From: Streptomyces sp. SCUT-3
GTDB lineage: Bacteria > Actinomycetota > Actinomycetes > Streptomycetales > Streptomycetaceae
Assembly: GCF_014083985.1 (NCBI RefSeq)
Contig: NZ_CP046907.1
Span: 2,274,001-2,338,000, forward strand
Direction of reading: 5' to 3'
Length of the DNA stretch: 64,000 bases
In this document: positions 45,373 through 47,782 of the stretch, piece by piece
Layout: the number at the start of each line of letters is the position of its first letter
How positions within the stretch are numbered: the first letter of the stretch is position 1
Made by a program: the position numbers and the translations under genes
Notes under the pieces: model-generated
What the model saw: the letters and a program-made list of their open reading frames with translations, nothing else
Databases searched by the model: none
What the model was told of the DNA's origin: nothing

Positions 45373-45963
45373 TCAGCCTCCGGTCAGGGCGGTGACGGCA
45401 CCGACGACGGCGGCGGCCGACGCCAGCGCGGTCAGGGCGGTGTTCCCGGTGGTCAGCAGGGACCGCAGGCGGGCCAGGCGGCCCGGGCCGGCCCTCCCGG
45501 TGCGGGTGATCTCCTCCTCGACGGCCGCCAGTTCGCCGTCCGCCTCCGTCACCTCCTCGGTGACGGACAGCAGCTCCAGGTGCTGCCGGAGCAGCCGGAC
45601 GGCCTCCAGCAGCTCCCGGTGGCCGCGGTCGGCGGCCACGGCGGCGTACTCCGCCTCGCTGCCCTCGCCCGCGGCGACCGCGCCGCCGGTGACGTGCCCG
45701 GCGACGTGCACCTCCCCCGGGACCCGCGAACCCGACGGCGCGGCGGGCGCCGGGAGTCCGCCGACGGGCCGTTCCCCGCCGCGGCGGCTGCGGTCGCGGG
45801 CCCTGGCGCCCGCGCCGGTGGCGATCGCCCCGCCGGTCATGCTGCCCCCGACGAACAGCCCGCCGGAGCCGGACGCCGGCCCGCCGGGACCCGCGGGCCC
45901 GGCCCCGGCCCCGCCACCACGGCCCTGCTCCTGCTCCTGCTCCTGCTCCTGCTCACGGTTCAT
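45373..45963 (-). CDS. Unknown protein with Glu-Gln repeat, two glycine-rich motifs and C-terminal hydrophobic helix
   Basis: 196 residues, no family recognised. An N-terminal Glu-Gln repeat (residues 4-13, from five CTGCTC hexamers) is followed by the motif 'GGLFVGGSMTGGAIATGAGA' (34-53). A related 'VHVAGHVTGGAVAAGEGS' lies near 85-102. A charged helical segment follows (about 115-165, 'HRELLEAVRLLRQHLELL', 'DGELAAVEEEITR'), then a hydrophobic C-terminal helix ('TALASAAAVVGAVTALTGG'). The same motif closes the upstream protein, whose gene it overlaps by 11 bp. Motif-mediated pairing of the two proteins is my inference, with the helix inserting in the membrane. Confidence 0.62.
   Translation of the reverse strand: MNREQEQEQEQEQGRGGGAGAGPAGPGGPASGSGGLFVGGSMTGGAIATGAGARARDRSRRGGERPVGGLPAPAAPSGSRVPGEVHVAGHVTGGAVAAGEGSEAEYAAVAADRGHRELLEAVRLLRQHLELLSVTEEVTEADGELAAVEEEITRTGRAGPGRLARLRSLLTTGNTALTALASAAAVVGAVTALTGG
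45925..45954. repeat. Five tandem CTGCTC hexamers at a gene overlap
   Basis: (CTGCTC)x5 encodes the Glu-Gln repeat at the start of the downstream protein and abuts the stop codon of the upstream gene. The 6-bp unit keeps frame, so copy-number change would alter repeat length, not phase. Confidence 0.9.
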
Positions 45964-47782
45964 CGTGGTCCCTCCTGCGTCCCCGGGCCGGGTGCGCCCC
46001 GGCGTGCTCGGCCTTGGAGCCGCTGCCGCTGGCGATGGCCCCGCCGCTCATCGAGCCGCCGATGAAGACCCCTCCGGCCGCGACGTTGACGACCTGCCGG
46101 TCGAACTCGTCGACCTCGTAGCCCTGGGACTTCAGGGCCGTCCGCACCCCGTTGACGATCCGGTCCTGGACGGTCTTGACGTACCGGCTGGCGTCCATCT
46201 TCTGGAACAGCGACACCGTCGGCTCGCTGCCCAGCTCCCGCACGGAGGCCAGCGGCCCCTCGGGCAGGGGGTTGCCGCGCGGGCGCAGCCACCTCCTCGG
46301 GACGGCCGCCGCCTCCCGGAGGGCGGACAGGACGGCCTCCGCCCCGGCGGCCGGCGCGGCGGCAAGGAAGGCGAGGGCCTCGCGCGGGCCGCCGGTGCCT
46401 GCGTCTGCGGCCAGGAGCGCGTCGGCGGTGCGGAAGTCCTCCCGGATCGGCGGCAGCACGTGCGGGACGACCTCCAGGACGAGCATGCCGCCCTGGGTGT
46501 GGATCCGGACCAGTACGGTGATCACGAGCTGCTCGTCCCAGGCGCCGATCCTCACCCGCAGGAAGTACCGGCGGGTCTCGGCGCCCTCGTCGACGGCCTC
46601 CGCCACCTGCTCCGCGATCGCGTCGGGCGAGTGGTCCGCCCCGTCGCGACGGTCCCCCGCCGGGAGGAAGACGCACTCCTGCAGTTCCAGGTCCTTGAGC
46701 CGGTCCCGGCTGGTGGCCGCGGACTCGCGCGCCAGCCGTTCGAGCTGGGGACGGATCAGGTCGACGACCTGGCGGCTCGTCAACCGTCCCCCGCTGCCCC
46801 CGGGTTTCCTGCGCCTGAGCTCCACGGCGAACGACCACGGCTCGTGCAGCCGGCCGGCCCCGGCGAACGGCCGGAAGGGGTCGTAGGAGGTCAGCGGCGA
46901 GTGCTGCTCGCGGTTGATCGCCGCGACGGTGCGCCGGTGGGCCGGGCCCACGTCGGGCATCCGGCGCGGCAGCAGCGGGAACGCCTCCCGGCTCAGCTCG
47001 TAACGCAGGGTCCCGAGGAGCTGTCCGCGCTGCCACAGTGTGCACAGGAGCAGGGCGGCGGGTGGCACCAGGGCCGCGGGGGCCCACTCCGGGAGCCACC
47101 ACTCCGGAGCCCCCAGGAGCGGCGCCTCCGCCGGCGGATCACCGAACCAGGTGTCCACCGCCGGGAGCACCAGGAGCGGGACCTCCCACCCGCCGAGCCA
47201 CGGCAGCCACGCCGGCAGCGGCACACCGGCGACGACGTGGACCGGGAGCCACCCCAGGGCCGCGACCCAGTACAGGACGTGGTTCAGCCGCGCGAGGAGG
47301 GTCCAGAACCGGGCGCGCCGCAGGCGCCGCCCGTCGGGCCCCCTGCGGGTGCCCGGCGCCGCGGTGAGGGTGCGGGCCGCCCACAGTCCCAGGCACACGA
47401 GGGCGTAGTAGGCGGACCACATGCCGAGCCGGAGGGCGGACGGCCAGTACGTGCCGCTGCGGACGGCGATCTGCCAGCCCGCGTGGTCGACCAGCACGAG
47501 GACGGGCCACAGGGCGAGCAGGAGGAGTCCGGTGCGCACCTCCCGGGCCCGGGCGCGCAGGGCGTGCGCCAGGACCGGGAGGACGTCGACGCCCAGCGAG
47601 GGGGCGACGGGCCGCTCGGGGTGGTCGAGGAGCTCCTCGACCACCCGGCGGCGGAAGGCGGCGTTCAGGTGGGCGCCCAGGCACAGCAGGCGGGTCGCCT
47701 CGCTGCGGTGCGCGTCGGCGCCGGGCCGGCGGGTGCCGGGTCTTCGCGGCCGCGGCGGTAAGGCGGGCGGAGTGCTGTCCAC
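45953..47782 (-). CDS. Unknown multi-pass membrane protein with C-terminal glycine-rich motif
   Basis: 609 residues, no family recognised. Four or more hydrophobic segments fill the first third ('GLLLLALWPVLVLVDHAG', 'GMWSAYYALVCLGLWAARTL', 'HVLYWVAALGWLPVHVVAGV', 'AALVPPAALLLCTLWQ'). A cytoplasmic region of about 330 residues follows ('QLVITVLVRIHTQGGMLVLEVVPHVLPPI', 'SLFQKMDASRYVKTVQDRIVNGV'). Residues 570-591 are the motif 'GGVFIGGSMSGGAIASGSGS', shared with the next protein. The GTG start at 47782 follows GGGGGA by 7 nt. The gene overlaps its neighbour by 11 bp. A sensor or scaffold whose tail recruits the neighbour is possible. Confidence 0.65.
   Translation of the reverse strand: MDSTPPALPPRPRRPGTRRPGADAHRSEATRLLCLGAHLNAAFRRRVVEELLDHPERPVAPSLGVDVLPVLAHALRARAREVRTGLLLLALWPVLVLVDHAGWQIAVRSGTYWPSALRLGMWSAYYALVCLGLWAARTLTAAPGTRRGPDGRRLRRARFWTLLARLNHVLYWVAALGWLPVHVVAGVPLPAWLPWLGGWEVPLLVLPAVDTWFGDPPAEAPLLGAPEWWLPEWAPAALVPPAALLLCTLWQRGQLLGTLRYELSREAFPLLPRRMPDVGPAHRRTVAAINREQHSPLTSYDPFRPFAGAGRLHEPWSFAVELRRRKPGGSGGRLTSRQVVDLIRPQLERLARESAATSRDRLKDLELQECVFLPAGDRRDGADHSPDAIAEQVAEAVDEGAETRRYFLRVRIGAWDEQLVITVLVRIHTQGGMLVLEVVPHVLPPIREDFRTADALLAADAGTGGPREALAFLAAAPAAGAEAVLSALREAAAVPRRWLRPRGNPLPEGPLASVRELGSEPTVSLFQKMDASRYVKTVQDRIVNGVRTALKSQGYEVDEFDRQVVNVAAGGVFIGGSMSGGAIASGSGSKAEHAGAHPARGRRRDHDEP

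What the first reader, a model, noticed from the sequence alone, without database searches (positions are those of the whole stretch)
45652..46075. A glycine-rich motif shared three times across two overlapping unknown genes
Seen directly: the membrane protein (45953-47782) ends with GGVFIGGSMSGGAIASGSGS at residues 570-589, and the next protein carries GGLFVGGSMTGGAIATGAGA at 34-53. A third, looser copy, VHVAGHVTGGAVAAGEGS, follows at about 85-102. DNA positions are 46010-46075, 45799-45864 and 45652-45711. Codons differ at many synonymous sites (e.g. Ser as TCG versus AGC), so the likeness is kept at protein level. Bacterial amyloid signalling sequences (BASS) are known as short Gly-rich motifs shared between a receptor and an effector encoded side by side, one C-terminal and one N-terminal. 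The second protein ends in a helix that could insert in membranes. A novel motif-coupled sensor/effector pair is my inference; no NLR nucleotide-binding domain is present.
Basis: partly seen in the sequence, partly recalled or inferred. Interest (0 to 1): 0.78.

Follow-up and report, generated by a model that had tools for sequence, protein, structure and literature searches.

The report
Matched-motif membrane sensor and effector genes
Two neighbouring bacterial genes, one for a membrane protein and one for a small partner protein, carry the same short glycine-rich tag; relatives in other actinobacteria keep the two tags matched while the tag and the partner's working end change, which points to an unrecognised immune-like signalling system built on tag-to-tag contact.

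Summary
The membrane protein (R, window 45953-47782, minus) ends in a ~25-residue Gly-rich motif. The overlapping next gene (E, 45373-45963) carries two copies before a helical C-terminal domain. R relatives occur in 134 of 297 genomes of the window's family and elsewhere in the class. In nearly all loci read, the tail motif reappears near the N-terminus of the next protein. It varies strongly between loci but co-varies within them: 50 non-redundant pairs score 73.2 for own partners against 36.8 shuffled (maximum of 20,000 shuffles 45.4), and the same holds among loci beside mdh. The partner's output domain is replaceable: mostly DUF5955-like helices, but PNP_UDP_1 nucleosidase in seven loci and EAD1 in one. 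One group has a beta-helix receptor instead. Motif profiles hit little outside such pairs. I conclude this is a motif-coupled sensor/effector system that works like amyloid (BASS-type) signalling but with a non-NLR membrane receptor and reversed motif order. Amyloid formation, trigger and effector activity are untested; the proposed membrane-inserting helix is only weakly supported.

The parts
45953..47782 (-). Receptor-like membrane protein R (P0001, 609 aa, GTG start)
   Evidence: one full-length copy in its genome; relatives in 134 of 297 family genomes at E<=1e-10
47030..47533 (-). Probable membrane region of R, residues 84-251. Four segments chosen by me (hydropathy 1.69, 1.21, 1.75, 1.26); the K/R pattern fits both ends inside the cell
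   Evidence: Kyte-Doolittle and K/R counts; no dedicated TM predictor was run; other peaks above 1.2 exist at 59, 191, 421, 470 and 567
46103..47029 (-). Soluble C-terminal region of R, residues 252-560; no recognised fold, no Walker A
   Evidence: (many invariant columns); AlphaFold model poor (pLDDT 47)
46016..46075 (-). Receptor-side Gly-rich motif, residues 570-589 (profile match extends a few residues further)
45373..45963 (-). Partner / effector-like protein E (P0002, 196 aa, ATG), overlapping R by 11 nt
45805..45864 (-). Effector-side motif copy 1, residues 34-53
   Evidence: E=1.4e-7 in its own genome
45658..45711 (-). Effector-side motif copy 2, residues 85-102
   Evidence: (E=2.2e-5)
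45382..45666 (-). Four-helix C-terminal domain of E, residues 100-194; some relatives match DUF5955 (PF19380)
   Evidence: block pLDDT about 69-92 there; residues 25-95 below 50; relatives 1.8e-12, 3.2e-8, 4.2e-8; P0002 itself no hit
48021..49010 (-). Malate dehydrogenase (name by eye) upstream: marks a recurrent chromosomal slot for this pair
   Evidence: mdh in the upstream flank of 37 of 97 related loci (in L006 about 3 kb away); also beside a decayed remnant (L195)

Best explanation
R is a polytopic membrane sensor whose cytosolic C-terminal tail carries a short Gly-rich, probably beta-forming motif. E is its dedicated partner: one or two copies of the same motif on a disordered N-terminus, followed by an output domain. 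Shown by sequence: adjacency, matched motifs that co-diversify within loci, replaceable output domains (DUF5955-like helices, PNP_UDP_1 nucleosidase, EAD1), and in one group an alternative receptor. Inferred: on sensing an insult at the membrane, perhaps phage or an envelope attack, R clusters; its tails expose or nucleate a beta-arch stack that recruits and templates the E motifs; the clustered output domain then acts. In the PNP_UDP versions that would be nucleoside or nucleotide breakdown. In the window's version it would be a helical domain that acts as adaptor or disturbs the membrane. Cognate matching would keep parallel systems insulated. Likelihoods: motif-mediated R-E coupling about 0.85; amyloid-type templating rather than ordinary docking about 0.55; a defence role about 0.6.
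For: Pair conservation. Co-diversification: 26 clusters; own partner 67.3 against shuffled 38.0, sd 2.36, maximum 49.9 of 20,000; rank 1 in 13 of 26; partial Mantel R-tail with E-N-terminus given R body and E helix r=0.355, p=2e-4, n=25; 50 clusters; 73.2 against 36.8, maximum 45.4 of 20,000; rank 1 in 27, rank 3 or better in 35; 10 clusters from loci beside mdh; 71.8 against 44.8; 0 of 100,000 permutations as high; rank 1 in 5. Output-domain swaps: PNP_UDP_1 in seven loci at 1e-23 to 1.4e-16; EAD1 at 1e-13. Receptor swap: Beta_helix in L203-L205 at 4e-40, 2.2e-31 and 8.8e-47, motifs matched. Motif mostly restricted to pairs: own genome, three copies stand out; 28 of 30 hits in 61 genomes; 10 of 13 hits, all the strong ones, in 246 genomes. 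Charge pattern fits a cytosolic tail. Known analogues: PMC7889193 and PMC9815663 (passages read).
Against: No amyloid predictor or experiment was run. Some clusters do not prefer their own partner: 15 of 50 rank fourth or worse (L210 18, L248 16, L090 15, L009 13, L004 and L208 11, L008 10, the EAD1 locus L260 4), 5 of 10 are not first. Several of these share one motif type. The controls are not perfectly flat: R tail against E's helical end scores 28.6 against 26.6 shuffled (sd 0.96, maximum 30.6), about 2 sd above, and R-tail similarity also tracks E-helix similarity given R body (r=0.30, p=0.001), so shared descent contributes. L041 has no recognisable motif partner. Motif profiles were built from the same loci they were tested on, and the grown profile reached only 79 of 93 R and 74 of 93 E proteins; the rest are matched by pairwise score or by eye. 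The partner in L085, L098 and L100 has motifs but no helical domain. The trigger is unknown. None of five receptors scanned matches a PADLOC family beyond 0.051, and the loci beside mdh look like chromosomal genes rather than mobile islands.
Confidence: 0.62

Rival explanations
1. The motif is an ordinary homotypic docking strand (a beta-hairpin or short beta-solenoid rung) that holds R and E in a constitutive complex; no templated polymerisation occurs.
For: The same co-variation would result. Motifs are G/A/V rich and only about 20-25 residues; one relative's motif region gives a weak beta-solenoid repeat hit (B_solenoid_ydck 9e-4, below its cut-off, L248).
Against: Variable copy number, terminal position on a low-confidence, probably disordered tail (E residues 25-95 below pLDDT 50), wide sequence turnover, and coupling to PNP_UDP_1 resemble amyloid signalling motifs (PMC9815663, PMC7889193, passages).
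Confidence: 0.3
2. E is not an effector but an adaptor or negative regulator of R: the DUF5955-like four-helix domain recruits a further protein or keeps R silent, and the operon is an envelope-stress or developmental sensor.
For: DUF5955 matches occur in 70 of 121 family genomes, some in E proteins but many in separate genes; those read showed no motif, so the domain is not intrinsically toxic. A third gene with one TM and an outer domain follows in 59 of 89 loci. EAD1, a coupling domain in PMC7159879, replaces the helical domain once. Foldseek's highest-probability hit among the 50 listed is PedB, a bacteriocin immunity four-helix bundle, at E=0.62, not significant.
Against: In seven loci the same position holds a PNP_UDP_1 enzyme, an effector in fungal amyloid signalosomes and listed among signalling and effector domains of bacterial conflict systems (PMC9815663, PMC7159879, passages).
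Confidence: 0.3
3. The likeness is only Gly/Ala-rich low complexity, or a recent duplication between neighbouring genes, with no functional coupling.
For: The genome is GC-rich; 10 of 14 identical residues share codons in the window, so a fairly recent exchange between copies 1 and 2 cannot be excluded.
Against: The match exceeds all shuffles; different motif types (STFAVG, GNGIAIG, AVGIGDHN, GPVAGG, SAVGxN) are each matched within their own pairs; co-variation remains after controlling for R-body and E-helix similarity.
Confidence: 0.04
4. R is a channel or transporter-like membrane protein and the shared motif only assembles a large membrane complex (scaffold), with no signalling.
For: Two to five hydrophobic peaks above 1.6 in each of 26 receptor representatives, mostly in the N-terminal half, a third membrane protein in 59 of 89 loci, and no known sensor domain.
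Against: Replacement of the helical partner by PNP_UDP_1 and EAD1, and of R by a beta-helix protein, fits modular signalling better than transport.
Confidence: 0.08

Closest known systems
BASS (bacterial amyloid signalling sequences) in NLR/Bell gene pairs
   Same: Short motif shared by two proteins of adjacent or overlapping genes, at a terminus of each; many motif families; described from multicellular bacteria (PMC7889193 and PMC9815663, passages read).
   Different: No NLR: R is a membrane protein without Walker A. Motif order is reversed (receptor C-terminus, effector N-terminus). The partner has a DUF5955-like, PNP_UDP_1 or EAD1 domain, not Bell. Membership in BASS1-10 could not be tested (profiles not held).
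PUASM and other amyloid motifs coupling fungal NLRs to PNP_UDP effectors
   Same: PNP_UDP effector joined by a matched G-rich motif to a receptor encoded next door (PMC9815663, passages read); seven relatives here have a PNP_UDP_1 partner.
   Different: Bacterial, non-NLR membrane receptor, effector motif N-terminal, and a different motif pattern (NSGVxNxGG...SAVGxN in six of the seven loci, rather than FxGxGxQxxGxGxF).
EAD coupling and the two-gene EACC1 system of actinobacteria
   Same: Homotypic coupling modules shared between a core component and an effector, often in adjacent genes; [quoted passage not shown] EAD1 occurs in one relative's partner (PMC7159879, section 33 and passages read; L238).
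   Different: EACC1 has a single TM and a caspase- or cyclase-type 3' gene; here R has several TM-like segments plus a large soluble region, no caspase was found in partners scanned, and the coupling element is a ~25-residue motif rather than a folded domain.
DUF5955 (PF19380)
   Same: E proteins of several relatives match it above the cut-off (L084, L096, L094; L248).
   Different: The separate DUF5955 proteins whose frames I read carry no motif and sit elsewhere; P0002 itself does not match at E up to 1.

Membership tests
BASS / NLR-associated amyloid signalosome | Short (20-40 aa) motif shared between proteins of adjacent genes | tested here: met
BASS / NLR-associated amyloid signalosome | Receptor is an NLR with the motif at its N-terminus | tested here: not met
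   No NACHT or NB-ARC Pfam hit in P0001 or the further receptors scanned; Walker A in 0 of 128 receptor sequences; motif is C-terminal
BASS / NLR-associated amyloid signalosome | Effector is a Bell (or CHAT, TIR) domain with the motif at its C-terminus | tested here: not met
   Motif is N-terminal; Pfam finds DUF5955, PNP_UDP_1 or EAD1 in relatives. No dedicated Bell profile was available
BASS / NLR-associated amyloid signalosome | Motif forms cross-beta / beta-arch amyloid and seeds the partner | not testable with these tools
   Needs peptide or cell experiments; AlphaFold leaves both motif regions at low confidence
BASS / NLR-associated amyloid signalosome | Match to one of the BASS1-10 profile HMMs | not testable with these tools
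   Profiles and the defining paper are not held
PNP_UDP amyloid-coupled effectors (fungal PUASM type) | PNP_UDP_1 domain in the partner protein | tested here: met
   In 7 related loci, not in the window
PNP_UDP amyloid-coupled effectors (fungal PUASM type) | FxGxGxQxxGxGxF motif | tested here: not met
   By eye on the pairs
EACC1 two-gene system (System 4 of PMC7159879) | 5' gene with single-TM EACC1 domain, 3' gene with N-terminal caspase or cyclase | tested here: not met
   P0001 and P0002 give no Pfam family at E<=1; R has several TM-like segments; no caspase in partners scanned. That Pfam holds an EACC1 model is recalled
EAD-coupled effectors | A copy of the same EAD in core component and effector | tested here: not met
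   Window pair: no hit. In L238/L260 the partner has EAD1 but its receptor has no Pfam hit
DUF5955 (PF19380) | Match above the curated cut-off (27.1 bits) | tested here: inconclusive
   P0002 none; of ten relatives' E proteins, three above the cut-off, three below it with E<0.02, four without a DUF5955 hit; a further above-cut-off case is L248
STAND / NLR P-loop NTPase | Walker A GxxxxGK[ST] | tested here: not met
   0 of 128 receptor sequences, three of them beta-helix proteins

The most novel reading that the evidence does not exclude
A widespread, undescribed class of bacterial membrane-embedded immune receptors that signal by amyloid templating without any NLR: a constant sensor scaffold passes its activated beta-arch fold through a rapidly diversifying C-terminal tail to cognate effectors (nucleosidase, helical or EAD-linked), so that amyloid signalling in bacteria is a general wiring module that unrelated receptors (polytopic membrane protein, beta-helix protein) can plug into, insulated by pair-specific motif codes.
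Probability: 0.4. Interest if true: 0.88.

Novelty: new variant of a known kind. Interest (0 to 1): 0.73.

Why it matters
If true, amyloid-type signalling in bacteria is not tied to NLRs. A membrane receptor family, found in 134 of 297 sampled genomes of the window's family, would use it, with co-evolving motif pairs supplying many natural 'codes' for receptor-effector specificity. That gives a testable system for how short beta-motifs discriminate cognate from non-cognate partners, and links a membrane sensor to PNP_UDP nucleosidase effectors known from fungal immunity.

Tried and rejected
AlphaFold of R (8-row alignment) was too poor to search with (pLDDT 47) and was not used. Foldseek of the E model against the PDB gave nothing significant (best E 0.47); the PedB four-helix hit is noted only. 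Sequence searches of solved structures gave nothing for R and only weak, helical-looking hits for E (best 0.029).

PDC-M14B (PADLOC) matches two relatives' E proteins weakly (2.3e-4 and 0.004), but the family occurs in 0 of 150 family genomes at E<=1e-6, so I did not pursue it. The idea that E is a pore-former was weakened by hydropathy (11 of 26 above 1.6). The idea that the pair is a mobile island is not supported: mdh lies in the upstream flank of 37 of 97 loci, and P0001 relatives lie on only 3 of 72,556 plasmid records. EACC1 'System 4' was considered and rejected.

Rows dropped before counts: L010 (masked), L021 (low codon contrast, though its motifs match by eye), L028 and L078 (reading frame); L079 (wrong frame, so the rule took a later gene), where the window pair was added, giving 93 again. 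L041, whose rule-picked ORF is unrelated, stayed in but is not a cluster representative. L085 was left out of the Mantel test, so 26 became 25. L196 and L198 (receptor missed by rule though seen) and L251 (low contrast) were not; L251's partner was later shown to be PNP_UDP_1. One search used three length-dependent cuts for the E N-terminus and an 85-residue R tail (90), because the simpler cut removed the motif of L085, which ranked 26th there. Of the other sub-tests, the distant class gave 67.8 against 39.1 (n=10, maximum 63.1) and the near class 66.9 against 45.0 (n=16, maximum 58.9).
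Full report
OBSERVATION. The window encodes R (P0001, 45953-47782, minus, 609 aa) and E (P0002, 45373-45963, minus, 196 aa), overlapping by 11 nt. R ends with GGVFIGGSMSGGAIASGSGS (570-589). E has GGLFVGGSMTGGAIATGAGA (34-53) and VHVAGHVTGGAVAAGEGS (85-102). The similarity exceeds 5,000 shuffles, also for copy 3 alone; BLASTP of R against E gives E=1e-5. 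The codon argument is weaker than stated (4 of 14 identical residues recoded). In its own genome (6.08 Mb, one contig) a motif profile finds only these three copies below E=0.5. Neither protein matches Pfam or NCBIfam at E<=1.

RELATIVES. R has relatives in 134 of 297 genomes of its family at E<=1e-10, in eight genome-contig loci (seven labelled Streptomyces, one Streptomonospora), and in 33 of 296 genomes of the class, 16 of them outside the family. I read 97 loci (L004-L100). In the 94 where the receptor frame was read to its end, the tail shows a G/N/V-rich motif by eye. A motif-independent rule (start -40 to +200 nt from the R stop, best codon-position contrast) gave a next gene in 93 of 97; without L079, 62 of 92 overlap R, 38 of them by 4 nt. 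By eye, in nearly all of these the next protein carries a like motif near its N-terminus, once or twice, usually followed by a helical domain. A profile grown from the window's three copies reaches 79 of 93 R and 74 of 93 E proteins, 28 of these E with two or more copies. L041 is an exception with no motif partner found. L085, L098 and L100 have a motif-only partner.

CO-DIVERSIFICATION. Motifs vary: GGVFIGxMSGGAVAxG, SVEGSTFAVGSHA, NVQGNGIAIGKDS, SAQGAVGIGDHNT, STVHGPVAGGAGA, STVSGAQAAGRGA, GGMSIVGNQAVGTGA and more, each mirrored in its partner. After clustering receptors at 60% identity, 26 pairs score 67.3 with their own partner against 38.0 when shuffled (sd 2.36, maximum 49.9 of 20,000), with rank 1 in 13 of 26. 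The same test with E's helical end gives 28.6 against 26.6 (sd 0.96, maximum 30.6), about 2 sd up but within the shuffled range. A partial Mantel test of R tail with E N-terminus, controlling for R-body and E-helix similarity, gives r=0.355, p=2e-4 (n=25). Against full specificity, R tail also tracks E helix given R body (r=0.30, p=0.001), so common descent contributes. With 35 further pairs (61 pairs, 50 clusters) own partners score 73.2 against 36.8 (sd 1.66, maximum 45.4 of 20,000), rank 1 in 27, rank 3 or better in 35, rank 4 or worse in 15. A malate dehydrogenase gene (named by eye) lies upstream, as in the window, in 37 of 97 loci (in L006 about 3 kb away). From these, 35 usable pairs including the window form 10 clusters: own partners 71.8 against 44.8, none of 100,000 permutations as high, rank 1 in 5 of 10. 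I infer that pairs in one chromosomal position have changed motif in concert.

SWAPS. The output domain is replaceable. Seven loci have a PNP_UDP_1 partner: L251, L252, L255, L256, L257, L258 and L261 (E 1e-23 to 1.4e-16). In L261 the receptor tail is IINSGIVNMGGTNDFTNTAVGDQA and the partner NNSGIVNMGGTNSFTNTAVGDQA. The five clusters that six of these form (L251 was not included) all rank their own partner first. L238/L260 has an EAD1 partner (1e-13), its receptor has no Pfam hit, and its pair ranks fourth. In L203-L205 the receptor is instead a right-handed beta-helix protein (Beta_helix 4e-40, 2.2e-31, 8.8e-47). The L203 tail has VNNYHGPVFVEAVHSAQLAWGNTNVVQQQ and its partner VNHYDGPVFNKVVSNAQLAWNNETVTQNQQ. 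L214 carries a motif-like stretch and a helical end in one 606-residue open frame.

RESTRICTION TO PAIRS. In 61 family genomes the motif profile A3 gives 30 hits at E<=0.05; 28 lie in R-type loci (compared by coordinates) and two weak ones do not (G037, G010). In 246 class genomes the PNP-type profile A5 gives 13 hits: ten strong ones in five genomes, one receptor and one partner each, plus three weak singles. Those five genomes also supplied the profile, so the lack of extra copies is the informative part.

ANATOMY AND MECHANISM. I place four membrane segments between residues 84 and 251 of R; two of them are weak (1.21 and 1.26) and other peaks exist. K/R counts (15 in the N-terminus, 2 in the first loop, 8 in the second, 0 in the third, 14 in residues 252-330) fit both ends inside. 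Relatives show two to five peaks above 1.6, mostly in the N-terminal half. Walker A occurs in 0 of 128 receptor sequences. The AlphaFold model of E has four helices (100-194) and a low-confidence N-terminus; that of R is unusable. The helical domain is DUF5955-like: of ten relatives' E proteins, three exceed the PF19380 cut-off, and L248 also does. DUF5955 matches occur in 70 of 121 family genomes, some of them E proteins. The separate genes whose frames I could read, including one in the window's genome, showed no motif, so the domain is not intrinsically toxic. A third gene (one TM, outer domain) follows in 59 of 89 loci with enough sequence, none of them in the distant class, and was not found in the 2.9 kb after E in the window. 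Shown by sequence: matched, co-varying motifs join R to a replaceable output domain. Inferred: clustering of R exposes its tails, which nucleate or dock E through like-with-like beta structure. Inferred more weakly: amyloid templating, and a defence role, by analogy with BASS (PMC7889193, passages) and with PNP_UDP effectors coupled by amyloid motifs in fungi (PMC9815663, passages).

KNOWN OR NEW. Canonical bacterial systems pair an NLR (motif N-terminal) with a Bell-type effector (motif C-terminal). Here there is no NLR, the order is reversed and the domains differ, so I do not file it as BASS; it works like one. EACC1 'System 4' (PMC7159879, section 33) differs in topology and effector. Also consulted: PMC12261475 (outline and sections 3 and 12), PMC8086366 (passages) and PMC8195603 (passages). 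Searches of the held open-access library for DUF5955, for non-NLR amyloid signalling and for PNP_UDP with bacterial amyloid signalling listed no description of this pair. The defining BASS paper is not held, so BASS1-10 membership of the motif is open. The three plasmid-borne relatives are annotated 'hypothetical protein' (two) or not at all (one).

Noticed in passing
L203, L204, L205: A different receptor scaffold (beta-helix protein) shares a distinct motif (GPVFxxxVxxAQLAWxNxxVxQ) with a DUF5955-like partner in the next gene.
   Followed up: partly
L195 (G054, beside mdh): Decayed locus: the start of R is joined in frame to the helical domain of E, as by an internal deletion, with the third gene still present.
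   Followed up: partly
loci between L006 and L080, after E: A third gene (W-x6-W start, one TM, outer domain with weak PsbP similarity 0.003) follows E in 59 of 89 loci but was not found after E in the window.
   Followed up: partly
L131 (window genome 1240681-1240929): A separate DUF5955 gene without the motif; similar genes are common in the family (70 of 121 genomes with a DUF5955 match), several beside a nucleotidyltransferase-like gene (named by eye); function unknown.
   Followed up: partly
L214 1996-3816: A 606-residue open frame ends in a motif-like stretch (GDVYNIGSVQGAVGGRHNTITQTN) plus a helical domain: possible one-protein version.
   Followed up: no
window 43576-45225: Downstream of E lie a Gly/Ser-rich lipoprotein-like ORF (44812-45225) and a glutathionylspermidine-synthase-like gene (43576-44790), named by eye; no relative of the latter was found in the 97 related loci.
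   Followed up: no
L085, L098, L100: Partner protein consists of two motif copies without any helical domain; a TPR-like reading frame (by eye) lies on the other strand further on.
   Followed up: no
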